From contig JAPWKE010000003.1 of NCBI GenBank assembly GCA_028283655.1, positions 744,001 through 808,000 of the forward strand: a stretch of 64,000 nt of DNA. The letters are read 5' to 3'. This DNA is from Acidobacteriaceae bacterium (GTDB lineage: Bacteria; Acidobacteriota; Terriglobia; Terriglobales; Acidobacteriaceae). Made by a program: the position numbers and the translations under genes. The notes under the pieces were generated by a model, which was given only the letters and a program-made list of their open reading frames with translations, was not told the origin of the DNA and did not search any database. This document shows, in pieces, positions 5,947 through 33,924 of this stretch; within the stretch, counting starts at the first letter, position 1, and each line of letters starts with the position of its first letter.

Positions 5947-5957
5947 CTGTATAACAA
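5947..5957. promoter_or_regulatory. Candidate GntR operator, site 1
   Basis: CTGTATAACAA matches the locus consensus TTGTATAACAA at 10 of 11 positions. A second copy of the GTATAAC core immediately precedes it (5941-5947). It lies upstream of the leftward glycosidase-like/amidohydrolase/aminotransferase operon. Confidence 0.6.
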
Positions 5958-6006
5958 ACTAATAATGATCGCGACTGATTGTCAATCGACGTTGTCGTTC
6001 AGCCGC

Positions 6007-7443
6007 TCACGCATACGGATTGAAGCCTGCGGGGAAGTGGCCCGTCGGCTCGATGTACTCGTACGGTTGGCGAGCGATGAAGCGCCCTGTGCCCGGCTGG
6101 CTGAGCACGAGATCGTCCTGAAAGGCGAGTTGACCTCGCAGGTAAACGCTCTTCGGAATGCCAACAGTTTCGAGGCCTTCGTAGGGTGTGTGGTCGGGAC
6201 CGTGGTGCATGTGGGCGTTGGCCAGCGTGCGCTTTGCGGTGGCGTCCCACAGTACGAGATCGGCGTCACTGCCGACGGCAATAGCACCTTTCTGGGGGTA
6301 CAGACCAAAGAGCTTGGCGGGGTTGCTGCTGACCAGGTCGACAAACTTTCGAAGCTGGATGCGGCCCTCGTGGACACCGCGCGTGTAGACGATCGGCAGC
6401 CTGGCTGCGAGGCCGGGGATGCCGTTGGGGATTTTGGAGAACGGCGCGTCGGGGCCAGCGAACATCTTGCCTTCGGTCCCGTGGAAGTTGAGTGGCGAGT
6501 GGTCGGAGGAGACGACGGTGATCGTTCCATCCTGAATGCGCTGCCAGAGGTCTTGCTGATCCTCCGCCGTGCGTGCCGGCGGCGCGAACATGAACTTGGC
6601 GCCTTCCATACCGGGACGGTTGAGGTCGTCGGCGGTCAGCACGAGATACTGCGAGCAGGTTTCGGCCCAGACTTTGACACCGCGGCCCTGAGCGCGCGCT
6701 ACTTCTTCCGCAGAGCCCTGTCCAGAGACGTGGAAGATCTGCAGTGGCGTATCCAAAGCCTCGGCCAGCGCGATGACGCGGTGCGTGGCTTCGCGCTCCA
6801 CGATCATCGGCTTGGCGAGCGTGAGAGCGTGTGGCGCGGTAATGCCCTGGGCGAGCAGTCGTTGGGTCAGCCAGTCGATCAACTCATGATGCTCGGCGTG
6901 TACGCAGACCAGCGCCCCGTATTTACGTGCGGCGTCCAGCACGGGCAGAATCTGTGCGTCGGTCATGCGCGTGCTGGCGTTCGCCATGAAGATCTTGATG
7001 GAGCGATGGCCTGCGGCGATCAGTTCGGGCAGTTCTCGTTCGAGCACTTCGGGCGTGGGATCGGTGATGGTGAGGTGGAAGCTGTGGTCGCAGCGCGAAC
7101 GCTGCGAAAGCTCATGCGAGTGTGCGGCAGCGTTCTTCAGCGAGCCTCCGCGCGGCTGCATGATGAACGACAGAAACGTCGTCGTGCCGCCTGCCAGTGC
7201 CGAAGCGCTTCCGCTGGCGAAGTCATCGGCGATCTGTGCGCCAGAGGAGAACGCCTGGTCGACATGTACATGCGAGTCAACGCCGCCGGGAAGCACCAGC
7301 AGACCCGAAGCATCAACGTCCTGTTGACCGGCTGGGAGAGAGGCTTCGATGGCGGCAATCTGTCCATCGCGAATACCGAGGTCGCAGGTCACGATGGCAT
7401 CGGGCGTTACCACGGTTCCGCGTCGAATCGTAAGGTCAAACAT
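6007..7443 (-). CDS. D-hydantoinase / dihydropyrimidinase / allantoinase family cyclic amidohydrolase
   Basis: 478 residues, typical for the family (about 450-480). Metal ligands are in the expected places: HVH at 58-60, the candidate carboxylated Lys 150 (SIKIFMA), His 182, His 238 and Asp 314 (SSDHSP). These enzymes open five- and six-membered cyclic ureides (hydantoins, dihydropyrimidines, allantoin) to N-carbamoyl acids in the cytoplasm. TAGGAG lies six bases before the ATG. It diverges from the beta-propeller gene across only 43 bases and reads toward the glycosidase-like operon. With PuuE at 28587-29519 the locus encodes two unrelated families of possible hydantoin-ring-opening enzyme. 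Hydantoinase versus allantoinase specificity is not resolvable by eye. Confidence 0.88.
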   Translation of the reverse strand: MFDLTIRRGTVVTPDAIVTCDLGIRDGQIAAIEASLPAGQQDVDASGLLVLPGGVDSHVHVDQAFSSGAQIADDFASGSASALAGGTTTFLSFIMQPRGGSLKNAAAHSHELSQRSRCDHSFHLTITDPTPEVLERELPELIAAGHRSIKIFMANASTRMTDAQILPVLDAARKYGALVCVHAEHHELIDWLTQRLLAQGITAPHALTLAKPMIVEREATHRVIALAEALDTPLQIFHVSGQGSAEEVARAQGRGVKVWAETCSQYLVLTADDLNRPGMEGAKFMFAPPARTAEDQQDLWQRIQDGTITVVSSDHSPLNFHGTEGKMFAGPDAPFSKIPNGIPGLAARLPIVYTRGVHEGRIQLRKFVDLVSSNPAKLFGLYPQKGAIAVGSDADLVLWDATAKRTLANAHMHHGPDHTPYEGLETVGIPKSVYLRGQLAFQDDLVLSQPGTGRFIARQPYEYIEPTGHFPAGFNPYA

Positions 7444-7486
7444 TGTGGCTCCTAGGGGGCTTGTTCGTAGAAAGGAAGAGGGTGTT

Positions 7487-8356
7487 ATGGAAGAGTTGTG
7501 GGTTCGGCTGGGTGAGAAGCGTTACCGGGTGGAGCGTCCGTTTGGCGATGTGCCGGGAGTGGAGCAGGGCAGCGTTTCGGACGTTGCGGTGAACTCGCGT
7601 GGGCACATCTTTGTGCTGCTGCGGCGCGACCCTTTGCTGACTCCCCAGGCTGCGGCTGTGGTCGAACTGGCACTGGATGGCAGCCGTGTTCGCGCGTGGG
7701 GAGAAGAGATTGCCGATGCGCACATGCTGGTGTGCCATCCGGCAAACGATGACGTCTTTGTCGTGGACCGTGACGCGCATGAGGTGCGTCGTTATAGTGC
7801 TGAAGGCCAATACAAAAGCTCGCTCGGCACACGCCACAGGCCGGGCGAACCGTTCAGCCATCCCACGGACATCGCCTTCATGCCTGGCGGGGAGATGGTG
7901 GTTGCCGACGGCTATGGCAACGCCACTGTTCACATCTTTGCGCCGGATGGCGAACGTCTGCGCTCCTTCGGCAAACTCGGCACGCAGCCTGGGAAGTTTC
8001 TGACGCCGCACTCCGTCTGCCCGCTCGATCAGCAGCACGTGGTCGTTGTCGATCGCGAAAATCACCGCCTGCAGGTCTTCAGTCTCGAAGGAAAGCTGGT
8101 CGACGTGTGGGGCGGGTTCTTCCGTCCACAGTCGGTCTGGAGCGATGGCAGGCAGCTTTTCGTCACGGATGCGGTTCCTTCGCTGAGCCTTTTGAGCCTT
8201 ACCGGGGAACGAATTTCGCGCTGCCGTCCTGTTTTGAATGGAGCCCACGGGCTCGCTGGAGACCCCGCCAGCGGCTGCCTTTATCTGGCGGAAACCAGCC
8301 CCAGCCGACTGACTTGCCTGGTTCCCGAAGATAAAGAGGCGTCGCATGTTGTATAA
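7487..8356 (+). CDS. Six-bladed NHL beta-propeller, peptidyl-hydroxyglycine amidating lyase (PAL)-like
   Basis: 289 residues from the ATG at 7487, with AAAGGAAG eight bases upstream; in-frame codons further upstream lack such a site. NHL-type blades are evident, with signatures also found in PAL: DGYGNATVHIF (about residue 144), a TPHSV turn, and VVDRENHRLQVF (about 187). PAL lyases split N-(alpha-hydroxyglycine) compounds to an amide plus glyoxylate, the same chemistry as ureidoglycolate lyase. No signal peptide is visible, so it is cytoplasmic here. It could equally be a non-catalytic NHL protein or a lactonase-like enzyme. Its stop codon lies inside operator site 2. Confidence 0.72.
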   Translation: MEELWVRLGEKRYRVERPFGDVPGVEQGSVSDVAVNSRGHIFVLLRRDPLLTPQAAAVVELALDGSRVRAWGEEIADAHMLVCHPANDDVFVVDRDAHEVRRYSAEGQYKSSLGTRHRPGEPFSHPTDIAFMPGGEMVVADGYGNATVHIFAPDGERLRSFGKLGTQPGKFLTPHSVCPLDQQHVVVVDRENHRLQVFSLEGKLVDVWGGFFRPQSVWSDGRQLFVTDAVPSLSLLSLTGERISRCRPVLNGAHGLAGDPASGCLYLAETSPSRLTCLVPEDKEASHVV

Positions 8357-8367
8357 CAATTATACAA
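8349..8367. promoter_or_regulatory. Candidate GntR operator, site 2 (perfect 19-bp dyad)
   Basis: TTGTATAA, a 3-base spacer CAA, then the exact reverse complement TTATACAA. The left 11 bases equal the locus consensus TTGTATAACAA. It sits 61 bases before the start of the half-aminotransferase gene and overlaps the end of the propeller gene. Confidence 0.75.
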
Positions 8368-8428
8368 AAGTAGCTGTATGTCTATCCTCAGCCAAGGCTT
8401 GGTGAACCGGATAGAAAGGACGCGGGAA

Positions 8429-9133
8429 ATGGCATTTGTCGTGGAATTTTCGAAGTGCGTCGAAGAACTAGGCGCATTGCAGGCGGTTTTGCCCAACGAC
8501 GACGTTGTGGCAAATCAGTGGAAGATTATGGCGCAGGCCGCCTCGGAGGCGTTGTCGCGCGGTGAGACGCACTACACGGATCGCCCGGGCATTCTGCCCT
8601 TGCGTCAGAAGGTCAGCGCGTTGCTGCAGAAGCGGTTCTCGCTGACGGTCGATGCGAAAGCTTCTGTTGTCGTCACCTGCGGTGCTGTGGAGGCGCGTTT
8701 TGTGGCGCTGCAGCAGCTTCTTGAAGCAGGCGCCGGGGTCTGGGCTTCGGAGTCGCTGCAGGAACTCATTGCCGGTGCGGCCTGTATGCGCCGCGCCACG
8801 CTGACATCCTCTCCTGAAGAGGCGAAGCTGGTGTACCTCGCCAGCAGTCTGAAGGAAAACGTTTTGCGTGCAACGCTGGCAAAGGTTGCGCCGGACGCCA
8901 TCGTGCTCTTCGAAGTCGATGAAGAGGGTGCGTCCTTCCACCCGTCGCAGGTCGGAGGCTTCTCCGAGCGAACGATCACCATCGGCCAGTTGGGCGACCC
9001 CGCCTGGCAGATGGGGTATCTGGTTGCTGCGGGTGGTTTCTCTGCAGGCCTGCGTGACTTCAAGCAGGCGCTCACCATCTGCTCGACCAACCTTTCGCAG
9101 TGGGCGATGCTCGCTGCCATGGAGGCCCAATGA
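8429..9133 (+). CDS. Truncated, lysine-less aminotransferase-like protein
   Basis: 234 residues from the ATG at 8429, which has GAAAGGA eight bases upstream; an ATG at 8378 in frame lacks a comparable site. It aligns with the N-terminal and large-domain part of the two complete aminotransferases here (for example GETHYTDRPGILPLRQ against THYTHPAGIPELRE). It lacks the NPTG motif and the SDEIY Asp/Tyr pattern, and where the Schiff-base lysine should be it reads GQLGDPAWQMGYL. It ends where the C-terminal small domain should begin. It therefore cannot be a normal PLP enzyme. It overlaps the complete aminotransferase by ATGA, so it is translated with it and may be a regulatory or structural partner, or a decaying duplicate. 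Confidence 0.78.
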   Translation: MAFVVEFSKCVEELGALQAVLPNDDVVANQWKIMAQAASEALSRGETHYTDRPGILPLRQKVSALLQKRFSLTVDAKASVVVTCGAVEARFVALQQLLEAGAGVWASESLQELIAGAACMRRATLTSSPEEAKLVYLASSLKENVLRATLAKVAPDAIVLFEVDEEGASFHPSQVGGFSERTITIGQLGDPAWQMGYLVAAGGFSAGLRDFKQALTICSTNLSQWAMLAAMEAQ

Positions 9134-10308
9134 ACGAACTAGCCGAAATCCAGTCTCTTGATGGAACCAAGCTGCGCTACGCGCTGATGGAGCTGTCGAA
9201 GTCGATTCCCGACGCCATCGCCCTGGGCCGTGGGGACCCGGACATGGACACGCCACAGTTCATCGTGGAAGCCGCGCGGAAAGCACTCGGCGAAGGTCCT
9301 CTGCCTGTGGCTCCGGTCCTCGGTCTTCCTGCGTTGCGTGAAGCGGTTGCGCGCAACGCGGTGCGCGACCATGCGAGCTCGATTGGGCCGGAGAACGTAC
9401 TCATCACAACGGGTGGCCAGGAAGCTCTCTTCCTGGTGATGACGCTGCTGCTCAACCCCGGCGACGAGATCCTTGTCCCGGACCCACGCTACACCTCGTA
9501 CGATCAGGCGATTGAGCATACGGGGGCAACGAGCGTCAGCGTTCCGACGTTTGCCAAGGACGGCTTCGATCTCGATCCGGCTGAAGTGGAGAAGCGCATC
9601 ACGCCGCGCACCAAGGCGTTGCTTCTGGTCACGCCCAGCAACCCGACCGGCGGCATTCTGACACCGGAGAGCGCACAAGGACTGGCTGAGTTGGCGCGCA
9701 AGCACAACTTCGTCATCGTCTCGGATGAGATCTACGGCAAGTTTGTCTGGAGCCCGTTCCGGCACACCAGCATCGCCGGGGAACCGGGACTCGCGGATCG
9801 TGTCATCACGATCTCGGGCTTCTCCAAGGCCTATGCGATGACCGGCTGGCGCGTGGGCTACATCCTCGCGGCGAAGGAAGCGATCGAAGCGATGGGTCGC
9901 ATCAAGTCGCACACGACGGGGCCCGTGGCCGCACTCAGCCAGCGAGCAGCACTGGCTGCAGCTCTTTCCGATGACCAATGCGTTCGCGACTTCCGCGAGG
10001 TCTACATCGAGCGGCGTGATCTGCTCGGTGCAGGCCTCAAGCAGATGGGGCTTTCCTTTGGCGAGCCGCGCGGAGGCTTCTTCTTCTGGGCGGACAGCTC
10101 CTCTACCGGTATGCGTGCTTTGGAGCTTTGCTACCTGATGCTCAAGCACGCTCGTGTCCTCATCTTCCCGGGCACGGCGTTTGGCCAGGCGTGGAGCGAC
10201 TACCTGCGTATCACCACCTTGCAGCCTACCTCCGTGCTGGCAGAGGCGGTGGAGCGCATGAACCCGGTGATGGAGCGCGTACGTCAGCAGAGCGGCGTCA
10301 CGCGCTAA
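9130..10308 (+). CDS. Class I/II PLP-dependent aminotransferase
   Basis: 392 residues starting at the ATG in the ATGA overlap with the preceding half-aminotransferase; GGAGG is four bases upstream. Complete active-site set: NPTG at 171-174, SDEIY at 198-202 and the PLP lysine K233 in GFSKAYAMTGWRVGY. It resembles the aminotransferase at 2026-3225 closely, and both open with a GRGDPD segment near residue 34-46. Likely role: transamination of an amino acid released from the imported substrate. It is followed by a strong hairpin, so it probably ends its transcript. Confidence 0.92.
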   Translation: MNELAEIQSLDGTKLRYALMELSKSIPDAIALGRGDPDMDTPQFIVEAARKALGEGPLPVAPVLGLPALREAVARNAVRDHASSIGPENVLITTGGQEALFLVMTLLLNPGDEILVPDPRYTSYDQAIEHTGATSVSVPTFAKDGFDLDPAEVEKRITPRTKALLLVTPSNPTGGILTPESAQGLAELARKHNFVIVSDEIYGKFVWSPFRHTSIAGEPGLADRVITISGFSKAYAMTGWRVGYILAAKEAIEAMGRIKSHTTGPVAALSQRAALAAALSDDQCVRDFREVYIERRDLLGAGLKQMGLSFGEPRGGFFFWADSSSTGMRALELCYLMLKHARVLIFPGTAFGQAWSDYLRITTLQPTSVLAEAVERMNPVMERVRQQSGVTR

Positions 10309-10393: not shown

Positions 10394-11119
10394 CTACTGA
10401 GCGCGTTGTGCAAGCTCCCAAGCGCTCAGTCGCTTGCCGGAGAGGCTGGCGTCGGGTTGTGTTGCGAGAAACACAAACGCTGGCGCAAGCTCTATCGGAT
10501 CCACCCAACGCTGCTTCAGCTCGTCTGGATAGTTCTGCTCAGACATTGGTGTTCGCATCGGCATGCCCGGCGTCACGCTGTGCGTGAAGACGCCTTGGTC
10601 TGTGCCTTCCAATCCCAGGGCAGAGGAGAAGCCTTCCAGCGCATGTTTCGTGGCGGCGTACGGTGCCTCGCCCCAGTCAGCTCGTATGCCGGAGTTGGAG
10701 GAGACGTAGATCGCGCAGCCCGACCCAGCGGCGAGCCACTGATTCCAGTACGCCCGGGTGAAGAGATATCCCGCCTGGATGCCGACGTTGAAGGTCAGCT
10801 CCCAGCGCTCCTCGGTCATCTCAGAGAACGCCTGTGGCACGAGGAACCCGGCGTTATGAACGAGCGTGTGAACGCTCGGGTGGTCGACGGCGATCTGTGC
10901 GATGGCTGCACGTGTGGCCTCGGCGCTGGAAAGATCGACGGCGTATACCGTGCTGCCGGGCAGCTCCTTCTGCAGCTCGAGCAGCGCCTTCTGGTCGTAG
11001 TCGACAAGCGCCAAATGGGCTCCTGCCTGATGAAACGCCACGGCAATAGCCTTTCCGAGCCCCTTGGCTGCTCCGGTGATGACGACATGCTGTTCAAGGA
11101 TGGCTCGCATAGCGGACAA
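10394..11119 (-). CDS. Short-chain dehydrogenase/reductase
   Basis: 241 residues. The TTG start at 11119 is chosen because GGAGG lies seven bases upstream; the next ATG (11110) is 16 bases away from it. The cofactor motif TGAAKGLG is at about 15-22, NAG at 89-91, the catalytic Ser at about 140, and Tyr 154 and Lys 158 (YAATK). This is a classical SDR acting on an alcohol or ketone; substrate unknown. It is divergent from the DUF4438 operon across a 114-base region holding operator site 3, so it is probably co-regulated with it. Confidence 0.87.
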   Translation of the reverse strand: MSAMRAILEQHVVITGAAKGLGKAIAVAFHQAGAHLALVDYDQKALLELQKELPGSTVYAVDLSSAEATRAAIAQIAVDHPSVHTLVHNAGFLVPQAFSEMTEERWELTFNVGIQAGYLFTRAYWNQWLAAGSGCAIYVSSNSGIRADWGEAPYAATKHALEGFSSALGLEGTDQGVFTHSVTPGMPMRTPMSEQNYPDELKQRWVDPIELAPAFVFLATQPDASLSGKRLSAWELAQRAQ

Positions 11120-11171
11120 GGTAAAACCTCCAGAAGAGAATCACGCTTGTATCTCAAGCGGTTAGTTGTTA

Positions 11172-11186
11172 GATTGTATTACAATC
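11172..11186. promoter_or_regulatory. Candidate GntR operator, site 3
   Basis: A perfect dyad GATTGTA-T-TACAATC. Its core TTGTATTACAA (11174-11184) differs from the consensus at one position. It lies between the divergent SDR and DUF4438 genes. Confidence 0.68.
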
Positions 11187-11233: not shown

Positions 11234-12100
11234 GTGCTACGAACCAATGCTGATCAGCTGGTCATGATGGCGGTTGCTGGAACGGTGAGTCAGCCGACAG
11301 TGCGTCATCCAGGCTACATCCCCGACAACGAGGGCAAGAGCGTTTTGCTTCCGGGTATGTCGGGAATTACGTACAACGTACGCACGGGCGATCCTGCGTT
11401 TGGCTGGGCGGCAGACCATGTCGAGCCTGGCGTGTCGATCGCCGCAGCGAACGAAGGCCATGACTTTGCTCTGCACTATCTCACCTGCATGGGCAACGAG
11501 GCGTTGGTGACCTCGGGGCTGTCGGCAGGAGCACGCGGTATTGTGACCGGTGAGCACGCGCGTATGCTGGTGGACTTCGAGTCCGAGGTGTACGACGGGC
11601 TGGCAGTCGGTGACAGCGTGCAGATCTCTGCTTATGGTCGCGGTTTGAAGCTGCTCGACTATCCGCACATCGAGCTCAAGAAGACGAGCCCGGCGATGCT
11701 GGAAGCGATGGGCGTTGAGGCCGTGGACGAGCGCCGCATTCGAGTCCGCGTTGCGATGGAGTTGCCGATCCGCATCATGGGTTCGGGAGCAGAGTTGAAC
11801 AGCGAGTTTGTTGACCAGGATCTGATGTCTGGCGACCGTTGCCTGATGAAGCAGCTTGGTATCGACAAGCTACGCCTGGGTGACGTGGTGGTGATCAACC
11901 ACGCCGACCATCGCTTTGGTCGCAGCTTCCGTTCGGGTGCGGTCAGCATCGCGCTGTGCATCCATGGCGACTCGGTGATGACGGGCCATGGCCCGGGCAT
12001 CATGACGATCATGACGTGCCCTGAGTCTTGCATCGAGTGGGTTATCGACAAGGGAGCAAACCTGGGAACGTACTTCGGCCTTGGAAAGGAAACGGCATGA
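11234..12100 (+). CDS. DUF4438 domain protein, copy 1
   Basis: 288 residues from a GTG at 11234 with AAGGA five bases upstream. The whole protein matches the style of the DUF4438 family: an N-terminal block near residue 41 (PGMSGITYNVRTGDPAFGW), a DKLRLGDVVVINHADHRFGR segment near 213, and a GHGPGIMTIMT Gly-rich end near 251. The biochemical function of the family is not established to my knowledge. No signal peptide is seen. It is the first gene of a rightward operon after operator site 3, and it overlaps the second DUF4438 gene by ATGA. The two copies align throughout, which suggests a duplicated pair forming a heteromer or acting on related substrates. Confidence 0.85.
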   Translation: MLRTNADQLVMMAVAGTVSQPTVRHPGYIPDNEGKSVLLPGMSGITYNVRTGDPAFGWAADHVEPGVSIAAANEGHDFALHYLTCMGNEALVTSGLSAGARGIVTGEHARMLVDFESEVYDGLAVGDSVQISAYGRGLKLLDYPHIELKKTSPAMLEAMGVEAVDERRIRVRVAMELPIRIMGSGAELNSEFVDQDLMSGDRCLMKQLGIDKLRLGDVVVINHADHRFGRSFRSGAVSIALCIHGDSVMTGHGPGIMTIMTCPESCIEWVIDKGANLGTYFGLGKETA

Positions 12101-12975: not shown

Positions 12976-12977
12976 GC

Positions 12978-14060: not shown

Positions 14061-14083
14061 GACAAAGGATAAGAAGGGGAATC

Positions 14084-15610: not shown

Positions 15611-15656
15611 CAATCTGAAGACAGCCTCTGGCTCGTCTAAGAGAAAGGAGTTCCGC

Positions 15657-17674: not shown

Positions 17675-17713
17675 CGAGCTTCGCAGATCACTACAGGAAA
17701 GAGTTCTCAAGAC

Positions 17714-20332: not shown

Positions 20333-20337
20333 GAACG

Positions 20338-25400: not shown

Positions 25401-25420
25401 GTGTATAACAATATTACAAG
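25401..25420. promoter_or_regulatory. Candidate GntR operator, site 5
   Basis: GTGTATAACAA (10 of 11 to the consensus), then TATTACAAG. The full TGTATAA-CAA-TATTACA arrangement parallels site 2. It lies between the divergent VOC and epimerase genes. Confidence 0.68.
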
Positions 25421-26408: not shown

Positions 26409-26422
26409 ACGTGGAGAAGAAG

Positions 26423-28099
26423 ATGGCAACGGCAATCAATACGAAGTTCGATCGGTACTACACCTACGACGAGATGACGGAGCAGCTCCAGAACCTGGTA
26501 GCAGCGTATCCGGAGCTGGCCAAGATGCGCTCGTTGGCGAAGACGTTTGCAGGTCGTGAGGTGTGGCTGGTTGAGATTACGAACCACCGCACCGGCCCGG
26601 CGCTGGAAAAGCCCGGCTACTACATCGACGCGCAGATCCATGCAGAAGAGCACGCGACCAGCGCAACCGCGCTCTACGCCATCTGGCATCTGTTGACGCA
26701 GTACGGCAAGGACGAAGAGGCCACTCGACTTGTCGACACACAGGTCTTCTATGTGCTGCCGCGCATCAACCCCGACGGCGCCGAGATGTCGCTTGTGCCG
26801 CCGTATCAGAACTGGTGTGGCAACGGTCGTTACACGCCTGAGACCGCGCGTCACGAAGGTCTGATCGCAGAAGACGTCGATGGCGATGGCTATCTCGCAT
26901 GGATGCGTGTGCCGGATACGAAGGGCGAGTGGAAGAAGAGTTCCTACAGTGACGATGTGATGGTGCAACGTTCTCCCGGAGAAGAGGGTGGCGAGTACTA
27001 CAGACTCTATCCCGAAGGTTCAATCCGCAACTTCGATGGCGTGGATGTAAAGGTAGAGAAGCCTTTCGACGGCAACATGAACCGCAACTTCCCGGCCAAC
27101 TGGTCGCGCGAGGAGTACGGTGCGGGTGAGTATCCGTTGTCTGAGCCCGAGGCCGCAGGCATGGCCCGCTTCATCCTTGAGCATCCGAACATTTGCGGCA
27201 TGTGCGCGTATCACACGCACGGAGGCGTGATCCTGCGGCCCAGTATGACGCGTCCCGACAGCTCCATGAGCCCGCGCGATCTTGCCTTGTATGACGCGAT
27301 CGGCAAGGTGGGCACGGAGATTACCGGCTACCCGACGATCAGCATCTATGAGGGCTTCACCCCGGACAAGTCGAAGCCGCGTCGCGGCGGTCTGATGGAC
27401 TGGACCTATGAAGAGATGGGCATCATCAGCATCGGCACGGAGCTGTGGGATCTGGAAGCGGCTGCAGGTGTTGAGAAGGCCAGCTTCTACAACCTGCATC
27501 CAGCAGGAGATGAGGCGCAGCGCAAGATCTACGAGTTTGTTCGCAAGAACCTGGGCGACCGCGGCTGGCGGCCGTGGAAGAGTTTCGAACACCCGCAACT
27601 GGGCACGATCGAGGTTGGCGGTATGGTGAACATCTGGGCTTACCGCAACCCGCCCGAACCAATGCTCGAGAAGGTCTGCCGCGAGAACGCGCTCTTCAAT
27701 CTGCGTCACGCCGCGGCGTCTCCACGCGTCCTCATCGACAGCGTTACGGTTGACTCGCTAGGCGCTGATCTTTACAAGGTGCGAGCTGTCGTTAGCAACC
27801 ACGGCTATCTACCGACGAACCTCTCAGACGTTGCGATCGAGAAGAACATCGCAAAGCCTGTCGAGATCTCCATCAACGTAGAGGGTGGAGAAGTTGTGAT
27901 GAATCCGGCATCGGTGCAGGTCGGTCATCTCGCTGGCCGCAATGAGCGCTTCGCTCCGTGGTCGCCCTGGGGACAGCAGTGGACCGCCGTTGGCAAGCCG
28001 GTTGAGTGGCTCGTTCGTGTCGCTGCCGGTGGATCGATTGAGGTGACGGCTCGTTCAGAAAAGGGTGGAACGTATCGCATCAAACAGCAGGCCGTTTAG
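26423..28099 (+). CDS. M14 zinc carboxypeptidase
   Basis: 558 residues from the ATG at 26423 (GGAGAAGAAG upstream); the open frame extends further back but without such support. Zinc ligands are His 73 and Glu 76 in QIHAEEHATS, with the third ligand in the AYHTHGG segment (264-266). The candidate catalytic Glu lies in ELWDLEAAAG near 343. There is no signal peptide, so it is probably cytoplasmic. About 150 residues after the catalytic domain form a C-terminal extension. It should trim C-terminal residues from peptides. Its stop codon overlaps that of the convergent ureidoglycolate lyase gene by four bases. Confidence 0.88.
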   Translation: MATAINTKFDRYYTYDEMTEQLQNLVAAYPELAKMRSLAKTFAGREVWLVEITNHRTGPALEKPGYYIDAQIHAEEHATSATALYAIWHLLTQYGKDEEATRLVDTQVFYVLPRINPDGAEMSLVPPYQNWCGNGRYTPETARHEGLIAEDVDGDGYLAWMRVPDTKGEWKKSSYSDDVMVQRSPGEEGGEYYRLYPEGSIRNFDGVDVKVEKPFDGNMNRNFPANWSREEYGAGEYPLSEPEAAGMARFILEHPNICGMCAYHTHGGVILRPSMTRPDSSMSPRDLALYDAIGKVGTEITGYPTISIYEGFTPDKSKPRRGGLMDWTYEEMGIISIGTELWDLEAAAGVEKASFYNLHPAGDEAQRKIYEFVRKNLGDRGWRPWKSFEHPQLGTIEVGGMVNIWAYRNPPEPMLEKVCRENALFNLRHAAASPRVLIDSVTVDSLGADLYKVRAVVSNHGYLPTNLSDVAIEKNIAKPVEISINVEGGEVVMNPASVQVGHLAGRNERFAPWSPWGQQWTAVGKPVEWLVRVAAGGSIEVTARSEKGGTYRIKQQAV

Positions 28100-28111
28100 G
28101 CCTGCTGTTTG
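28081..28111. terminator. Bidirectional hairpin formed by two overlapping stop regions
   Basis: A perfect 13-bp stem (28081-28093 with 28099-28111, loop GTTTA). Both stop codons lie in the loop and stem, so the last codons of both genes form the stem and encode KQQA(V) on each strand. Confidence 0.82.
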
Positions 28112-28584
28112 TCCGGCGCAATGATCTCAAGCGGTTCCGAGAGTGTAATGAACTCGTCATCGCTACGGTCGTTGCGCCACATGTACACCGCAAAGTGTGC
28201 CTTGCTATCGAGTGCTGTCGCGCCTGCGTGCCAGGTGTTCGCACGATAGACAACGCCGACGTTGCCCGGTGCGACGAAACATTGTGCTCCTGCCAGATCG
28301 GGCGAGCCATCGGCCAGGCTGGGGGCAACAACGATCAGATACTGCGAAGCCTCAAGCGGAACGAAGATCTGCGCGGCGTGGGGATGACGCTCCAGCAGTG
28401 TGACGCTGTGTGGCAGAGCCGTGGGAACGACAAAGTTCACATGCAGGCGAGGTGTCGCGTCCTTCAACTCGCTGCCTAGCCACTCTGTCAAAAAAGCGCG
28501 CTCCCCCGGGGCCGCTGGTGGAGACACCAGGCACCCGAAGGGAGCGAACTCGTCTGCGTGGACGGGCTTGGGATGCAGCCGCAT
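28096..28584 (-). CDS. allA: Ureidoglycolate lyase
   Basis: 162 residues from the ATG at 28584, two bases after the PuuE stop. The cupin-like ureidoglycolate lyase pattern is clear: an N-terminal FAPFGCLV segment, HPHAAQIFVPLE near 66, and YRANTWHAGATAL near 111. It splits ureidoglycolate to glyoxylate and urea. Urea would feed the urease encoded about 6 kb downstream. It is the last gene of the VOC / AstE-like / PuuE / lyase operon. Family assignment is firm; the true substrate could be another alpha-hydroxy ureide. Confidence 0.9.
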   Translation of the reverse strand: MRLHPKPVHADEFAPFGCLVSPPAAPGERAFLTEWLGSELKDATPRLHVNFVVPTALPHSVTLLERHPHAAQIFVPLEASQYLIVVAPSLADGSPDLAGAQCFVAPGNVGVVYRANTWHAGATALDSKAHFAVYMWRNDRSDDEFITLSEPLEIIAPDKQQA

Positions 28585-28586
28585 AG

Positions 28587-29519
28587 TTAGGACGCCTCGG
28601 CAGGGAAGCGGCCAATCCAGTGCCGCGCGATATCCTCGCGACGGCATACGTAGACGTCGTCGAGGGTCTTCACGTAGTCAAGAAAACGTGCAAGCCCGGC
28701 GGCGCGCCCTGGATGACCAAGAATGCGGAGATGCATGCCGACGTTCATCATGCGTGGCTGTTGTTTGCCTTCTGCGCGCAGCATATCGAGCGAGTCGCGG
28801 AGGAACGCGAAGTACGTTTCACCCGTTGTGATGCCTCCACGAAGCAGCCGCGCATCGTTGACCGTGAGCGAGTAAGGAACGACCAGGTGAGGACGCGCAC
28901 CGGTGTTGTCCCAATACGGCAGATCGTCGTTATAGGCATCGCTATCGTAGAGAAAGCCGCCTTCTTCGATCAGCAGTTTGCGCGTGAACACAGCAGGCGC
29001 ATACCGGCAGTACCAGCCGAGGGGGCGCTTACCGAGTGTGCGTTGAAACGAGGCCACAGCTTCTGTGATCTCGCGACGCTGCTCGTCTTCTGTCAGCGTG
29101 AACTGTTCGTTCCAGCGCAGACCGTGCGAGCAGATGTCCCAGTCGAGTCGGCGAATGGCCGCTGCAGCTTCTGGGTTGCGTTCAATAGCCTGCGCGCAGG
29201 CAAAGACCGTGACCGGAAGTTTGCGTTGTTCGAAGAGGCGAAGCAGCCGCCAGAACCCAACGCGTGTTCCGTACTCATACATGGACTCGGCGGCAAGGTC
29301 ACGATTGCCCTGCGCCACGCGGGACGTTGCCACTTCGAGTAAGGCACGCTCGGAGTGCTCATCCCCATCGGGGATGGAGTACTCCGAACCTTCCTCGAAG
29401 TTCATCACGAAGTTCAAAGCTACAGAAGCGTTGCCGGGCCACTGTGGGTTCGGCGGGTTCTGTCCGTAGCCGCAAAAATCGCGCGGGTGAGAATCTGGGC
29501 TTGGTACAGGAGGTGTCAT
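28587..29519 (-). CDS. puuE: PuuE-type allantoinase (polysaccharide-deacetylase fold)
   Basis: 310 residues starting at the ATG at 29519, which overlaps the upstream stop as TGATG. The N-terminal signature RDFCGYG with PPNPQWPG and the NFEEGSEY segment are characteristic of PuuE, a metal-independent allantoinase of the deacetylase fold, rather than of true polysaccharide deacetylases. PuuE opens the hydantoin ring of allantoin to allantoate. None of its usual purine partners (HIU hydrolase, OHCU decarboxylase, uricase) is in the window, so it may act on imported allantoin or on a different hydantoin. It is followed immediately by ureidoglycolate lyase. Confidence 0.88.
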   Translation of the reverse strand: MTPPVPSPDSHPRDFCGYGQNPPNPQWPGNASVALNFVMNFEEGSEYSIPDGDEHSERALLEVATSRVAQGNRDLAAESMYEYGTRVGFWRLLRLFEQRKLPVTVFACAQAIERNPEAAAAIRRLDWDICSHGLRWNEQFTLTEDEQRREITEAVASFQRTLGKRPLGWYCRYAPAVFTRKLLIEEGGFLYDSDAYNDDLPYWDNTGARPHLVVPYSLTVNDARLLRGGITTGETYFAFLRDSLDMLRAEGKQQPRMMNVGMHLRILGHPGRAAGLARFLDYVKTLDDVYVCRREDIARHWIGRFPAEAS

Positions 29520-30514
29520 CAGTCGCGGAACCCATCTGTCTTGCCGTAGAAGCAGCACCATTCCCCGGTCATCACGTTGGGCAGAGCGCGCAGCCCAAAG
29601 ATCATGCCATCTGCCGGAGCAACAAGCGTTCCGACCACATCACCCCACACATCGACGATGTTGGCGATTGGATCGCCCTTCTTCATCGGCTTCTTGCAGG
29701 CAACGCCTTCTGCCGGAACATAGACACCGCTGGCCGGAGCGAGCAGGGCTTCCTGCACACCCTTCCACCGCTTCTCCGGATAGTGCGCTTCGCCGGCGAT
29801 CATGCCGTAGTGACGCAGCACATTGCGCATCGCTTCCGTCAGGATGCCGACAACACGGCGCATCTCCTCGGGGGAGGTGGCCGGTCGTCCGCCCAGCTCT
29901 ACCGTGATGCCGCTCTTGCCCGCTTCGAGCATCGTTGCCATCGGGTTGCCCTTCGGGCTGATCGCAGAGAGCACAAGCTCCCAGCCGCGGCCCATGGCCT
30001 TCGCCAGCTCGATCGACTTCTCATCTTCGTTGACGAAGATCGTCTCGGAGAGATACGAATGAGCGCCACCGGAGTGGATGGACAGTTCGTAATCCGCAAC
30101 CGTCTTCAAGAACTCTGCATGAGCCCAGGCGATGCGCTCGGTCAGGTATCCCTGTGCGCGGCCCGGGTAGATGCGGTTCATGTCGTACGAGAAGGTGTCG
30201 AGCGGGTTGCCGCGCTGTCCGGCCTCGAACGCCGGGGCGTTCATGGCAGGAACCAGAACCAGCGTTCCGGAAAGCGCCTCTGGCTTGATCTCTGCGGCAA
30301 GGGCGTGGCAGGTCAGCGTGCCTTCCGGCTCATCGCCATGAATGCACGCATCAATCCAAACGCATGGGCCGGACTGCGAGCCGTTGATGACGATGACCGG
30401 GATGGAGATATCGGCTCCGGTTCCGGTCTTTGTCACGGGGATATGACCGCGTACGATCGTGCCGGGTGCGGCAACGGCGGTACCTACTGTGATCGTTTTT
30501 ACCTGCTGGGCCAT
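29519..30514 (-). CDS. Succinylglutamate desuccinylase/aspartoacylase-family (M14-like) deacylase
   Basis: 331 residues. The zinc motif is His 59 - Glu 62 in CIHGDEPEG, the third His in SIHSGGAHSY near 148 and the catalytic Glu in TVELGG near 205. The AstE/AspA family cleaves N-acyl amino acids (succinyl-Glu, acetyl-Asp, N-acetyl-diaminobutyrate). The C-terminal beta domain is present (GVYVPAEGVACKKPMKKGD). In this operon it might remove an N-carbamoyl or N-acyl group, or cleave allantoate in place of the absent allantoicase; that is speculative. Second gene of the operon, five bases after the VOC gene. Confidence 0.87.
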   Translation of the reverse strand: MAQQVKTITVGTAVAAPGTIVRGHIPVTKTGTGADISIPVIVINGSQSGPCVWIDACIHGDEPEGTLTCHALAAEIKPEALSGTLVLVPAMNAPAFEAGQRGNPLDTFSYDMNRIYPGRAQGYLTERIAWAHAEFLKTVADYELSIHSGGAHSYLSETIFVNEDEKSIELAKAMGRGWELVLSAISPKGNPMATMLEAGKSGITVELGGRPATSPEEMRRVVGILTEAMRNVLRHYGMIAGEAHYPEKRWKGVQEALLAPASGVYVPAEGVACKKPMKKGDPIANIVDVWGDVVGTLVAPADGMIFGLRALPNVMTGEWCCFYGKTDGFRD

Positions 30515-30519
30515 GTCGA

Positions 30520-30990
30520 CTAGATCCCCTTTACAGCGTTGTATTTATCAAGCTCTGCAGCGTTGTAGACCTGCATAAATTCAATCTCAATGCCACCGGC
30601 ATCGCTGTCGAGAAACGCAACGTAACCTTCCGGGTGCGGGTGGCTGCCCGTAATCTTGCAGGCCTTGCATTCACGCAGGGCTGCGCCCTTTTGCTGTGCT
30701 TCGGAGAGGGCCTTTTCGATGTCCGCTACTTCGTAGCAGATGTGGTGAAGGCCTTCTGCTCCACGCTGAGCGATCCACGAAGCGAAGCGTCCGTCGGCAT
30801 CCATCGACTGCGAAAGCTGGTACTCGATGCCACCGAGCAGGAACAGGGCCACGCGATTGCGTGACTTCGGGTACTCCGTCACCGCCGTGTCGGCAGGAAC
30901 GCCGAGGAAGCGGACATAGGTGTCCAGCGCTGCCTCTGCGTTACGTACGGCAAACGCCATGTGCTTGATGGATTTCACGTTTTCGCTCAA
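30520..30990 (-). CDS. VOC superfamily protein (methylmalonyl-CoA epimerase-like)
   Basis: 156 residues from a TTG start at 30990, supported by AAAGGA ten bases upstream. Likely metal ligands are His 10 (SIKHMAFAV), His in GLHHICYEV near 82 and Glu in GIEIEFMQV near 136. The fold resembles methylmalonyl-CoA epimerase, but substrate cannot be inferred. It is the first gene of the AstE-like / PuuE / ureidoglycolate lyase operon. There is a terminator between it and the SDR upstream and no obvious operator, so its promoter may lie in the 36 bases just before the gene. Confidence 0.83.
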   Translation of the reverse strand: MSENVKSIKHMAFAVRNAEAALDTYVRFLGVPADTAVTEYPKSRNRVALFLLGGIEYQLSQSMDADGRFASWIAQRGAEGLHHICYEVADIEKALSEAQQKGAALRECKACKITGSHPHPEGYVAFLDSDAGGIEIEFMQVYNAAELDKYNAVKGI

Positions 30991-31026
30991 TGTCTTCGAG
31001 TCCTTTCGTAGGGGGAGAAAAAGGGA

Positions 31027-31052
31027 GAAGAGACCGCATCGGCGGTCTCTTC
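31027..31052 (-). terminator. Rho-independent terminator of the second SDR (leftward)
   Basis: A perfect 11-bp stem (31027-31037 with 31042-31052, loop ATCG). On the minus strand it is followed by CTCCCTTTTTCTC. Confidence 0.82.
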
Positions 31053-31065
31053 AAGGGTGTCTGAT

Positions 31066-31830
31066 TTAGGTGGCGACGCGGCCGCCGTCGATAAGCAGTC
31101 CGATTCCCGTAGTGAAGGAGGACTGCTCCGAAGCTAGATAAAGAACGGTTTCAGCGATCTCTTCGCCTGTGCCCATACGTCCCATGGGTGTCGCAGACAT
31201 CCATTTTTCGGCCAAAGCATCAGGATCGGCTGCAAGATCAAGGTTGCGGCGGTTCATGCCCGTGTCGATCACGCCCGGGCAGATCGCATTGACGCGGATG
31301 TTCTTCCGCGAATACTCAATCGCGAGCACGCGCGTCAGCGACATAATGGCGCCCTTGGACGCGGCATACGAGACGTTCCCGCCAACGTTTGCATACGCGC
31401 TCACCGAACTGTTGTTCACGATGACGCCGCCGCCGGTACGGAGAAACGACTGGATCGCATACTTGCAGCCGAGGAACGTACCTTTAAGGTTGACATCGAT
31501 CACGCGCTCGAAGATCGCGGTGTCGAGCTCTGAGGAGGCCGTCAGGGGCTGCTCAATGCCTGCGTTGTTGAAGAGGATGTCGAGCTTGCCGAAGTGCGTC
31601 TCCGCGGTCTGTACCAGCGCCGAAACCTGGGACTCGACCCGCATATCGCAGGGCTGGAAGAGAATTCGGCCACTCTGGGCCCGAATCTCTGCTGCTGCCG
31701 CTTCTCCCGCGACAACATCCACATCGCCAAGGACAACGGAAGCACCTTCGCGGGCAAAAAGGGAGGCCGTGGAGCGGCCCATGCCGCTGGCGCCGCCGGT
31801 AATAATCGCTACTTTATTGCTAAGCCGCAT
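31066..31830 (-). CDS. Short-chain dehydrogenase/reductase
   Basis: 254 residues from the ATG at 31830, giving the usual MRLSNKVAIITGG start with AGGA four bases upstream. The open frame extends about 350 bases further but that part is not SDR-like. The cofactor motif TGGASGMG is at about 11-18, NNAG at 88-91, the catalytic Ser near 141, and Tyr 155 and Lys 159 (YAASK). Probably a 3-hydroxy-acid or sugar dehydrogenase. Divergent from the second Gfo/Idh gene across operator site 6. Confidence 0.88.
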   Translation of the reverse strand: MRLSNKVAIITGGASGMGRSTASLFAREGASVVLGDVDVVAGEAAAAEIRAQSGRILFQPCDMRVESQVSALVQTAETHFGKLDILFNNAGIEQPLTASSELDTAIFERVIDVNLKGTFLGCKYAIQSFLRTGGGVIVNNSSVSAYANVGGNVSYAASKGAIMSLTRVLAIEYSRKNIRVNAICPGVIDTGMNRRNLDLAADPDALAEKWMSATPMGRMGTGEEIAETVLYLASEQSSFTTGIGLLIDGGRVAT

Positions 31831-31925
31831 GGAATCCTGCACTGTCGTCTCCGCACACAAAATCATGAAACGGGAACGGCTGGATGATGACATTGGACGG
31901 TGGAAGCCACTGTTCGTATGTATGA

Positions 31926-31936
31926 TTGTATAACAA
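31926..31936. promoter_or_regulatory. Candidate GntR operator, site 6
   Basis: An exact TTGTATAACAA lies between the divergent SDR (leftward) and Gfo/Idh (rightward) genes. It is 90 bases before the SDR start and 109 before the Gfo/Idh start. Confidence 0.72.
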
Positions 31937-32044
31937 GTCAAGCGACGCCTTGTCCAGCACTTTCGGGCTTTGTCAGCGTATGGCAGCTGGAATCCGCGTT
32001 TGATACGGCGTTTACGGTTAATTAGAGATTCAGGAGCAGAAGCG

Positions 32045-33112
32045 ATGCGAGTTGGAATTATTGGAGCCAGTTTTGCAAAAGCCGCCTTCCTGCCCGCCTT
32101 TCGGCATGTAGCAGGTGCCGAAGTGGTGGCGTTGGCGAGTTCCAGGCTGGAGAGCGCGGAGGCCGCAGCGAAGCCGTTCGGCGTCAAGCATGTTTATGCG
32201 GATTGGCAGTTGATGCTGCAGGAGCAGTCGCTCGACCTGGTCTGCATCGCCACCCCGACGGTGATGCACGCCCCGATGGTCTTCGCTGCGCTGGAAGCGG
32301 GTGCGCATGTGTTGAGCGAAAAGCCGACGGCGATGGACGCGCAGGAAGCTGCCGCCATGTTGCAGATGGCGGAAAAGCTCGGGCGCGTGCACATGATCGA
32401 CCACGAACTGCGCTTTAACGCCAAGCGAAAGAAGCTGCGCGAGCTTCTGCAGGCCGGCGCCATCGGCACGGTCCGTCATGTCGTGGTGCACAACGTGGGC
32501 GGCAGTTGGGCTGATCCGAAGTCGCGCCCTGCTGGCGACTGGTGGTCTTTGGCGAAGATGGGCGGCGGTCGTCTGGGAGCGAATGGCTCGCATCAGGTCG
32601 ACCTGCTGCGTTGGTGGCTTGGTGAAATTACCGCTGTCTCCGGCACCGTGAAAACGATGGTTCCTGACCGCATTGATCCGCGCACGGGCGCGTCTTGGAC
32701 CGCGACGGCGGACGATCTTGTTCAGTTCTCGGCGGAGTTTGCTTCGGGTACGTTGGCGAATGTGCTCATCAGCACCATCGCTCGTCATGGAGCTGCGAAC
32801 GAGACGACGTTCTACGGCAGCGAAGGGACGATCACCCTCTCGAACGATACCGAGAAGCTGATGATGGGCGCTGTTGGCGAGCCACTTCAGGAGATCGAAG
32901 TCGCGAATCCTTACGATGGCCTCGAAGGCGTCAACGCCGGGATCTGGAACCAGTCTGTGGTGGGTGCTGTGCAGGAACTCTGCGCGGCGATCAGCGAGAA
33001 GCGGGCCCTGCGCGAAGGAGCTACCTTCCGCGATGGCCTGCAGAACCAGCGCGTGCTTGATGCCATCCGCGACTCGGAAGCCCAGAGGCAGTGGGTAGCG
33101 GTTCCGCAGTAA
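32045..33112 (+). CDS. Gfo/Idh/MocA family oxidoreductase
   Basis: 355 residues from the ATG at 32045 with AGGAG about nine bases upstream. The Rossmann motif GIIGASFAK is at residues 4-12, and EKPTAMD near residue 97 carries the catalytic-turn Lys-Pro. The C-terminal alpha/beta domain is complete. Substrate unknown. It is distinct from the Gfo/Idh at 978-2042, so the locus has two. It ends at a strong hairpin facing the convergent regulator gene. Confidence 0.88.
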   Translation: MRVGIIGASFAKAAFLPAFRHVAGAEVVALASSRLESAEAAAKPFGVKHVYADWQLMLQEQSLDLVCIATPTVMHAPMVFAALEAGAHVLSEKPTAMDAQEAAAMLQMAEKLGRVHMIDHELRFNAKRKKLRELLQAGAIGTVRHVVVHNVGGSWADPKSRPAGDWWSLAKMGGGRLGANGSHQVDLLRWWLGEITAVSGTVKTMVPDRIDPRTGASWTATADDLVQFSAEFASGTLANVLISTIARHGAANETTFYGSEGTITLSNDTEKLMMGAVGEPLQEIEVANPYDGLEGVNAGIWNQSVVGAVQELCAAISEKRALREGATFRDGLQNQRVLDAIRDSEAQRQWVAVPQ

Positions 33113-33130
33113 CCGCAAAGGATAAAAGAG

Positions 33131-33164
33131 AACGGGCGGAGCAGCTCTAGCTGCTTCGCCCGTT
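33131..33164. terminator. Bidirectional hairpin between Gfo/Idh and GntR genes
   Basis: A 15-bp stem (33131-33145 with 33150-33164, one G-T pair, loop TCTA). T residues flank it on the plus strand. Confidence 0.75.
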
Positions 33165-33170
33165 TCAGCG

Positions 33171-33878
33171 TTAGAGGAACTTCCGGCGGCGGCGGTCGAT
33201 GAGAAGAATGTGGCTTTCGAGCGCTTCGCTCACCTCTTCCGGTGCCCCGGGCTTCTTGATCTGCTCGAAGATGAAGTCACGGAATAGCTCGTGCTGACGG
33301 GGAATCGCCATCAGATTTTTGTCGCGGTAGCGTTCAAAGTTGAAGACAATCGTGACATGGCGAGCGATTGTGTCCCACAGCGTGCCAGCGATCGGATTGC
33401 GCGCTGCATTGCGAATCGTGCGATGGAACTCCAGATCTGCGAGTAGTGAGGCAGGTACATCTTCGGACTTCGCCGCGCGTTCCATCTCTGCAATCGCGAT
33501 ATTGAGTTCGTTGGGATCTTCCACACCGCTGCGCCAGTTATTCAGGGCATCGCGCAGTAGAAACGTTTCGAGCATCAGGCGTACTTCGAGGATCTGCTGC
33601 GTCGTTTCTGCGTCGAAGGTCGCAACGTGATATCCACGATGTCCCCCGCCGGTCAGGATGCCTTGCGCATGCAATACTTTCAGCGCTTCACGGATAGGAA
33701 CACGGCTTACGCCAAGTTTTTCTGCCAGGGTCGTTTCCACGATGCGCTCGCCCGGCACGAGCCGCCGGGTCGCAATCGAGTTGGCAATGAGGTTTGCGAT
33801 GTTGTCGGCCAGCGACGTCCAGAGCGGTTTCCTCAGGAGGTCAGTACTGCTGGCGCTCAGCGGTGCGTCGATCGACAA
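33171..33878 (-). CDS. GntR family transcriptional regulator, FCD (FadR/VanR) subfamily
   Basis: 235 residues from a TTG at 33878 (AGAGG seven bases upstream). The winged helix-turn-helix lies at about 20-85, with the VETTLAEKLGVSRVPIREAL recognition segment near residues 46-65. It is followed by an all-helical FCD ligand domain ending near 225. A perfect 24-base dyad with the TGTATAA half-site lies 22 bases upstream, so autoregulation is expected. The same half-site recurs in six other intergenic places in this locus. The regulator therefore probably controls the whole cluster, most likely as a repressor relieved by a pathway intermediate. The effector is unknown. Confidence 0.9.
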   Translation of the reverse strand: MSIDAPLSASSTDLLRKPLWTSLADNIANLIANSIATRRLVPGERIVETTLAEKLGVSRVPIREALKVLHAQGILTGGGHRGYHVATFDAETTQQILEVRLMLETFLLRDALNNWRSGVEDPNELNIAIAEMERAAKSEDVPASLLADLEFHRTIRNAARNPIAGTLWDTIARHVTIVFNFERYRDKNLMAIPRQHELFRDFIFEQIKKPGAPEEVSEALESHILLIDRRRRKFL

Positions 33879-33900
33879 AATGGGCCTCTTTCAAAAGGTG

Positions 33901-33924
33901 TGAATGTATAATTTTATACATTCA
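33901..33924. promoter_or_regulatory. Candidate GntR autoregulatory operator, site 7
   Basis: Arms TGAATGTATAA and its exact reverse complement are separated by TT (24 bases). It lies between the GntR start and the divergent urease operon (ureF start at 34047), so both may be controlled. Confidence 0.78.

What the first reader, a model, noticed from the sequence alone, without database searches (positions are those of the whole stretch)
5947..33924. Seven related operators define one GntR regulon across the catabolic locus
Exact or near-exact TTGTATAACAA sites or TGTATAA dyads occur at 5947, 8349, 11172, 21333, 25401, 31926 and 33901. Every one is intergenic or in a promoter region, and together they stand before the glycosidase-like, half-aminotransferase, DUF4438/SDR, TonB receptor, VOC/epimerase, SDR/Gfo-Idh and regulator genes. 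The only GntR gene in the window has the strongest dyad at its own promoter. This argues that 26 or so genes act as one pathway with its own outer- and inner-membrane uptake.
Basis: partly seen in the sequence, partly recalled or inferred. Interest (0 to 1): 0.85.

Follow-up and report, generated by a model that had tools for sequence, protein, structure and literature searches.

The report
One repressor's switch across catabolic genes
A soil-type bacterium's catabolic gene cluster carries the same short DNA switch in front of seven groups of genes, and very distant bacteria that own the same regulator carry the same switch, so these genes (probably with a neighbouring urease) very likely form one regulated module of a familiar kind, for a food source not yet known.

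Summary
The sites are real and the regulon reading holds up. TTGTATAACAA occurs three times in the 4.27 Mb genome, all in this cluster; 6 of 11 genome-wide places with at most one mismatch lie in 26 kb. All seven sites are footprints in two genus mates (123 of 143 operator columns invariant, 247 of 895 in the rest of the same intergenic stretches). A motif learned only from alphaproteobacterial promoters near the orthologous GntR puts its 12 best window hits at six of the seven sites, five clearly, the TonB site barely above control. The seventh, at the GntR promoter, has another layout, TGTATAA-TT-TTATACA.

Additions: the operator is a GT-N3-AC palindrome, in part of the sites with an extra half-site 8 bp away. 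The GntR ortholog, the cluster's M14 gene and an adjacent urease occur in the same 3 of 28 genus genomes; urease faces the GntR dyad. With hydantoinase-, PuuE- and ureidoglycolate-lyase-like genes this suggests breakdown of a ureide- or hydantoin-containing, peptide-like compound that releases urea.

It is a new regulon of a known kind (FCD-type GntR). Binding and substrate are untested.

The parts
33171..33878 (-). GntR regulator, 235 aa: winged HTH plus FCD effector domain
   Evidence: PF00392 and PF07729 over cut-off; recognition stretch VSRVPIREALKVLHAQGI nearly invariant, and D148, H152, H196, H223 kept in 24 of 24 aligned sequences: the window's, L012 and 22 of the 27 alphaproteobacterial loci
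5939..5957 (.). Operator 1, AGGTATAACTGTATAACAA, 39 bp upstream of the glycosidase-like gene (4 genes leftward)
   Evidence: (19.9 bits)
8349..8367 (.). Operator 2, TTGTATAACAATTATACAA, before the half-aminotransferase and aminotransferase genes
   Evidence: (24.5 bits)
11166..11184 (.). Operator 3, TTGTTAGATTGTATTACAA, in the divergent promoter SDR1 / DUF4438-Ldh2-M32-Opp
   Evidence: 18.8 bits; 19 of 19 columns invariant
21325..21351 (.). Operator 4, core with a half-site-like box on both sides (TTGCTAGATTGTATAACAAACTAGCAA on the minus strand), before the TonB receptor
   Evidence: 7.7 bits, best reversed control 6.8
25401..25420 (.). Operator 5, GTGTATAACAATATTACAAG, divergent promoter VOC / epimerase-M14
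   Evidence: (11.2 bits)
31919..31937 (.). Operator 6, TGTATGATTGTATAACAAG, divergent promoter SDR3 operon / Gfo-Idh; best match to the alphaproteobacterial motif
   Evidence: 27.8 bits
33903..33922 (.). Operator 7, AATGTATAATTTTATACATT, between GntR (25 bp upstream of its start) and ureF (152 bp)
   Evidence: not retrieved by the motif
978..5900 (-). Unit 1: glycosidase-like (4464-5900), amidohydrolase (3222-4451), aminotransferase (2026-3225), Gfo/Idh (978-2042)
   Evidence: broad TIM-barrel glycosidase fold matches for the first
8429..10308 (+). Unit 2: half-aminotransferase (8429-9133), aminotransferase (9100-10308)
   Evidence: a 17-pair terminator-like hairpin at 10325-10361 on the minus strand lies just beyond (the scan as a whole found 15 such sites against 16.6 in shuffles)
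10394..11119 (-). Unit 3a: SDR1
11234..21249 (+). Unit 3b: DUF4438 x2, Ldh2-like dehydrogenase, M32 carboxypeptidase, Opp/Dpp-type ABC importer (D, F, A, B, C)
   Evidence: one transcript is inferred from spacing
21478..24723 (+). Unit 4: TonB-dependent receptor (CarboxypepD_reg plus beta barrel)
   Evidence: 11-pair terminator-like hairpin at 24749
24888..25313 (-). Unit 5a: VOC protein (start chosen by me inside a longer reading frame)
25452..28099 (+). Unit 5b: NAD-dependent epimerase-like (25452-26408), M14 zinc carboxypeptidase (26405-28099)
28096..31866 (-). Unit 6a: SDR3, VOC2, aspartoacylase-like, PuuE-type allantoinase-like, ureidoglycolate-lyase-like
32045..33112 (+). Unit 6b: Gfo/Idh oxidoreductase
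34074..38790 (+). Urease operon ureF-ureD-ureAB-ureC-ureG, divergent from GntR across operator 7
   Evidence: ureD, ureAB and ureC next to the cluster in both genus mates; UreC in 3 of 28 genus genomes, the same three
6007..8356 (.). Cluster genes without an operator of their own: D-hydantoinase/dihydropyrimidinase (6007-7443, minus) and NHL-repeat protein (7487-8356, plus)
   Evidence: no motif hit in the 7443-7487 gap among the listed hits

Best explanation
An FCD-type GntR protein (33171-33878) is the local, probably autoregulated, repressor of the cluster. A dimer reads the palindrome TTGT-N3-ACAA. Part of the sites carry a further TTGTAT-like half-site whose start lies 8 bp from the core start, which would let a second dimer bind cooperatively. 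Without inducer it blocks seven promoter regions that drive about 27 cluster genes and probably the five urease genes. An intermediate, likely a carboxylate held through the conserved Asp/His set of the FCD domain, releases it. The genes encode outer-membrane (TonB) and inner-membrane (Opp ABC) uptake, carboxypeptidases and amidohydrolases, hydantoinase-, allantoinase- and ureidoglycolate-lyase-like enzymes, oxidoreductases and urease. The likely function is breakdown of a ureide- or hydantoin-containing, peptide-like compound that ends in urea. Shown by computation: the sites, their conservation, their link to this GntR in two phyla, and co-occurrence with urease. Inferred: binding, repression rather than activation, cooperativity, inducer class, transcript units, substrate.
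For: Concentration in the genome. In 28 genus genomes TTGTATWACAA occurs 14 times: 9 in the cluster of the three genomes that hold the GntR ortholog, 5 in the other 25; the reversed control occurs 22 times, 2 of them in those three genomes. TGTATAA-N2-3-TTATACA occurs at 2 places in each of G000 and G140 and nowhere in the other 26. Footprints: 123 of 143 operator columns invariant against 247 of 895 (Fisher 3.6e-41, columns treated as independent). 27 alphaproteobacterial loci around GntR relatives (43-65% identical) hold 26 core sites with at most one mismatch against 1 in the reversed control, in 472,910 bases. The motif learned from 15 alphaproteobacterial SDR3 upstream regions (11 carry it) puts its 12 best window hits at six of the seven places, 27.8 to 6.4 bits; best reversed-control score 6.8 bits; no hit of 6 bits or more in control stretches of the same genome. 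Half-site at offset 8 in 6 of 16 acidobacterial and 12 of 26 alphaproteobacterial cores; at any other offset from 4 to 15 at most 1 and at most 4. Recognition region conserved. GntR ortholog, M14 and UreC in the same 3 of 28 genomes.
Against: The GntR-promoter dyad is not retrieved by the cross-phylum motif, and the TonB site scores 7.7 bits, little above the best reversed control. 11 of 27 alphaproteobacterial loci have no motif hit of 7 bits or more, and 4 of the 15 training promoters lack it. I chose the SDR3 promoters for training after seeing core sites near them, so the choice of promoters was informed, although the motif letters came from alphaproteobacteria only. The half-site at offset 8 is clear in fewer than half of the cores. 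The three genus genomes look like close kin, so their co-occurrence may be a single event. Two cluster genes lack a site. Three other Acidobacteriota carry core catabolic genes with no GntR ortholog and no core site in the stretches fetched, so the genes can live under other control.
Confidence: 0.85

Rival explanations
1. The sites are operators, but of a different regulator: one of the other seven GntR proteins in the genome, or a regulator encoded elsewhere.
For: The genome has 8 PF00392 matches. The dyad at this GntR's own promoter has a different layout from the other six.
Against: In 28 genus genomes the sites cluster only where this GntR is present. The same motif is found around 16 of 27 of its relatives in another phylum.
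Confidence: 0.07
2. The motif is a set of AT-rich promoter elements (-10-like TATAA) rather than operators.
For: The core contains TATAA and lies 25-127 bp upstream of the nearer start codon.
Against: The core is symmetric with a fixed GT-N3-AC spacing, and an extra half-site prefers one offset in two phyla. The 25 genus genomes without the GntR ortholog hold only 5 copies of TTGTATWACAA. The promoter scan of 5800-25700, which covers operators 1-5, found no sigma-70-like site at them.
Confidence: 0.04
3. It is a classical allantoin (purine) degradation regulon, an Acidobacteriota counterpart of HpxS- or AllR-type control (AllR recalled).
For: PuuE-like allantoinase (388 bits against a cut-off of 424.6), ureidoglycolate-lyase-like protein, hydantoinase and urease together.
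Against: None of the allantoinase or ureidoglycolate-lyase models reaches its curated cut-off. No allantoicase or allantoate amidohydrolase was named for the 30 window proteins scanned against NCBIfam. Peptide uptake, carboxypeptidases, aminotransferases and a glycosidase-like protein do not fit. Alphaproteobacterial loci looked at have HyuA/HyuB-type (L025, L035) and RidA-type (L013, L025, L032) genes.
Confidence: 0.1

Closest known systems
FadR subfamily (FCD) of GntR regulators, as reconstructed by Suvorova et al. 2015 (PMC4494728, passages read)
   Same: GntR winged HTH plus all-helical effector domain; A/T-rich palindrome with TKGT/ACMA boxes and, in most groups, 3 nt between GT and AC; extra weak half-sites 7-12 nt from the site centre in 13 FadR-subfamily groups; a single site in a divergent promoter usually serving both operons
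   Different: This orthologous group, its operators and its target genes are not named in the passages I read; the GntR-promoter dyad lacks the central AC; substrate unknown
NanR of E. coli (PMC8012715, listing with start of abstract only)
   Same: GntR-type repressor with GTATA-containing half-sites in a multi-box operator
   Different: NanR uses three direct repeats (GGTATA); here the core is a palindrome with an added box in part of the sites
HpxS (one mention in PMC4494728, passage read; its role in purine use is recalled)
   Same: FadR-subfamily GntR; a ureide-like theme
   Different: HpxS sites have 2 nt between GT and AC, here 3

Membership tests
FadR/FCD subfamily of GntR regulators | N-terminal GntR winged HTH | tested here: met
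   PF00392 48.4 bits against cut-off 27
FadR/FCD subfamily of GntR regulators | C-terminal FCD effector domain | tested here: met
   PF07729 56.9 bits against cut-off 24.3; D148, H152, H196, H223 in 24 of 24 aligned sequences (window, L012, 22 of 27 alphaproteobacterial loci); that these residues bind metal is recalled
FadR/FCD subfamily of GntR regulators | Palindromic operator with GT-N3-AC | tested here: met
   Six of seven sites; operator 7 is an exception
FadR/FCD subfamily of GntR regulators | Effector-controlled binding of the protein to these sites | not testable with these tools
   needs gel shift or DAP-seq
HpxS-type purine regulator | 2 nt between GT and AC | tested here: not met
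   3 nt here; HpxS spacing from PMC4494728
NanR-type direct-repeat operator | Direct GGTATA-like repeats as the main element | tested here: inconclusive
   A direct-repeat half-site at offset 8 is present in part of the sites (6 of 16 and 12 of 26), but the core is a palindrome
Allantoin degradation pathway | Allantoinase and ureidoglycolate lyase over curated cut-offs | tested here: not met
   PuuE model 388.4 of 424.6 bits; ureidoglycolate lyase best 72.9 of 160

The most novel reading that the evidence does not exclude
A mobile regulator-plus-operator-plus-pathway module, shared by Alphaproteobacteria and a few Acidobacteriota, for a so far undescribed ureide- or hydantoin-containing glycopeptide-like nutrient, in which urease and nickel uptake were gained together with the pathway and placed under the same GntR; the regulator uses a compound operator in which a second dimer joins through a half-site 8 bp away.
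Probability: 0.35. Interest if true: 0.6.

Novelty: new member of a known kind. Interest (0 to 1): 0.45.

Why it matters
It gives a tightly defined, testable regulon around many genes of unclear function (DUF4438, a glycosidase-like family, PuuE-like and M14 enzymes), with the same operator in two phyla. The inducer of one regulator, or growth tests on one mutant, would name the substrate for all of them and tie the urease to a urea-releasing pathway.

Tried and rejected
Weak look-alikes 11147 (inside a hairpin) and 17714 (which may lie in the OppA reading frame): dropped because the motif is not kept in both G140 and G169.

Plasmid records as a source of annotated relatives: no GntR match at 1e-40; the glycosidase-like protein only at 32% in two records.

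Literature: TTGTATAACAA in two unrelated papers (listing); DUF4438 in none; a combination with hydantoinase and Devosia in none; one with allantoinase and urease gave one paper, on nitrogen starvation in Mycobacterium smegmatis (listing). Searches (8 listed; 19 papers, 10 listed) gave papers on other GntR or other regulators by their titles.

The glycosidase-like structure (mean pLDDT 69, pTM 0.75, nine sequences) gave only broad TIM-barrel glycosidase matches, TM-score over the query at most 0.49 in the 50 rows shown, so no substrate follows. DUF4438 matches the solved but uncharacterised TM1086.

Rows without support: alphaproteobacterial loci with no motif hit of 7 bits or more are L014, L017, L018, L019, L021, L022, L023, L028, L033, L037, L039 (11 of 27). 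Training promoters without the motif: L027, L028, L029, L030. L037 is a 43% relative on the same contig as L028. L012 and G169 appear to be the same record (equal contig length), so L012 was not counted as independent. The GntR alignment used 22 of the 27 alphaproteobacterial loci; L018, L023, L027, L031 and L039 were left out. TTGTNNNACAA as a whole is not enriched in the genome: 16 places against 42 for the reversed pattern.
Full report
Observation. The motif is present as described, with small corrections: exact copies at 8349+, 21333- and 31926+, one-mismatch copies at 5947, 11174 and 25401, and a different dyad, TGTATAA-TT-TTATACA, at 33905-33920. It exceeds chance in the window (9 against 2.6 expected, 0 of 100 shuffles). 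In the genome the exact 11-mer occurs 3 times in 4.27 Mb, all here. With up to one mismatch 6 of 11 places fall in these 26 kb, while the reversed pattern gives 19 places. The looser palindrome TTGTNNNACAA occurs at 16 places against 42 for the reversed pattern, so it is not enriched as such; but the four places with an AT-only centre are the four in this cluster. By my gene starts the sites lie between genes, except that operator 2 overlaps the last 8 bases of the NHL gene. For the glycosidase-like and VOC genes I moved the start inward from the gene caller's choice, which ran over the sites.

Genus comparison. The GntR ortholog occurs in 3 of 28 genus genomes: the own one, G140 (90% identical) and G169 (89%); a fourth match, in G167, is 36% identical and was not counted. 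Across 396 genomes sampled from the phylum only the own one matches at 1e-30. Both mates carry all 28 cluster proteins that I used as queries, in the same order (the VOC gene at 24888 was not a query). All seven sites align in both; over the operator spans 123 of 143 columns are invariant, against 247 of 895 in the rest of the same intergenic stretches. In G169 operator 6 has changed at several positions but still scores 18.9 bits with the motif described below. TTGTATWACAA has 14 matches in the 28 genomes, 9 of them in the cluster of the three GntR-bearing genomes; the reversed control has 22, two of them in those three. TGTATAA-N2-3-TTATACA is found only at operators 2 and 7 of G000 and their counterparts in G140.

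Cross-phylum test. A scan of one genome for each of 84,980 species found 28 loci: L012 (apparently the G169 record) and 27 whose titles are alphaproteobacterial (Rhizobium, Aureimonas, Devosia, Methylobacterium and others; class assignment recalled), 43-65% identical. Many share neighbours with the window: SDR3, SDR1, M14, OppD/F, the glycosidase-like gene, aminotransferase 1, the amidohydrolase, and in one case the DUF4438 pair. Those 27 loci hold 26 core sites with at most one mismatch, against 1 in the reversed control. I then learned a 19-base motif by expectation maximisation from 15 SDR3 upstream regions of these loci only; 11 carry it, with consensus TGTATACTTGTATTACAA. Applied to the window, its 12 best hits lie at operators 6, 2, 1, 3, 5 and 4 and nowhere else (27.8 down to 6.4 bits; best per operator 27.8, 24.5, 19.9, 18.8, 11.2 and 7.7). 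The best score in the reversed window is 6.8, so operator 4 stands only just clear. The best hit is the promoter of the orthologous SDR3. About 69 kb of other own-genome stretches (overlaps removed by hand) gave no hit of 6 bits or more. I chose SDR3 promoters after seeing core sites near them, so the test is independent in its letters but not fully in its design. Sixteen of 27 loci have at least one hit of 7 bits or more, 44 hits in all, the training sites included, against 2 reversed; 11 loci have none.

Operator structure. Besides the GT-N3-AC core, a TTGTAT-like half-site (5 or 6 of 6 bases) starts 8 bases from the core start in 6 of 16 acidobacterial and 12 of 26 alphaproteobacterial cores; other offsets from 4 to 15 give at most 1 and at most 4. 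Operator 4 has a TTGCTAG box on both sides. Suvorova et al. (PMC4494728, passages read) describe both the 3-nt spacing and weak extra half-sites 7-12 nt from the site centre in the FadR subfamily, so this is a known architecture. The GntR has the GntR and FCD domains, and the Asp/His set D148, H152, H196, H223 is kept in 24 of 24 aligned sequences (the window's, L012 and 22 of the 27 alphaproteobacterial loci); that this set binds metal and a carboxylate ligand is recalled.

What the regulon holds. The operators stand before units of 4, 2, 1+9, 1, 1+2, 5+1 and 1 genes: 27 by my count, including the regulator. Transcript units are inferred from spacing and direction. Hydantoinase and NHL genes lack a site. 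The urease operon ureF-D-AB-C-G starts 152 bp from operator 7 on the other side of GntR, with a nickel transporter further on. UreD, UreAB and UreC adjoin the cluster in both mates (the fetched stretches end before ureG), and UreC occurs in the same 3 of 28 genus genomes as the GntR ortholog and M14 genes. These three look like close kin, so this may be one event. Urease control by the GntR is inferred.

Pathway. The enzyme set points to a compound that crosses the outer membrane by TonB and the inner membrane by a peptide-type importer, loses residues to carboxypeptidases and amidohydrolases, and has a hydantoin- or ureide-like part whose opening ends in urea. The PuuE and ureidoglycolate-lyase matches are below curated cut-offs; the dihydropyrimidinase passes one. 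Alphaproteobacterial loci that I looked at hold HyuA/HyuB-type (L025, L035) and RidA-type (L013, L025, L032) genes. Three other Acidobacteriota hold core genes at about 55-67% identity; the stretches fetched (one of them a 14-kb contig) show no GntR ortholog at 1e-10 and no core site, and the phylum search, which appears to have drawn the same genomes, reported none at 1e-30. So the regulator seems to have been added to or lost from the module. Direction of transfer was not tested.

Verdict. It is a new regulon of a well-known regulator kind; the substrate is the open and more interesting question.

Noticed in passing
8429-9133: A 234-aa half-length aminotransferase-like protein directly before a full aminotransferase; kept in both genus mates (65-72% identical), so it looks like a real gene and not decay.
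   Followed up: partly
34074-41593: Urease operon plus a second Opp-type binding protein (38796-40391) and a NicO nickel transporter (40478-41593); UreC occurs in only 3 of 28 genus genomes.
   Followed up: partly
4464-5900: Glycosidase-like family with no PDB sequence match at 0.01; predicted TIM barrel; beside an amidohydrolase and an aminotransferase in the window, both genus mates, three alphaproteobacterial loci (L014, L017, L018) and three other Acidobacteriota.
   Followed up: partly
2026-3225 and 9100-10308: Both full aminotransferases score well with the guanitoxin GntC cyclodehydratase model (340 and 308 bits, cut-off 415, so below it), the second as its best hit; a PLP cyclisation or ring chemistry role is possible.
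   Followed up: no
11234-12975: Tandem DUF4438 genes, 71-72% identical to a tandem pair near a GntR relative in a Methylobacterium MAG (L032), with a weak operator hit (8.0 bits, L032:13184) just upstream.
   Followed up: partly
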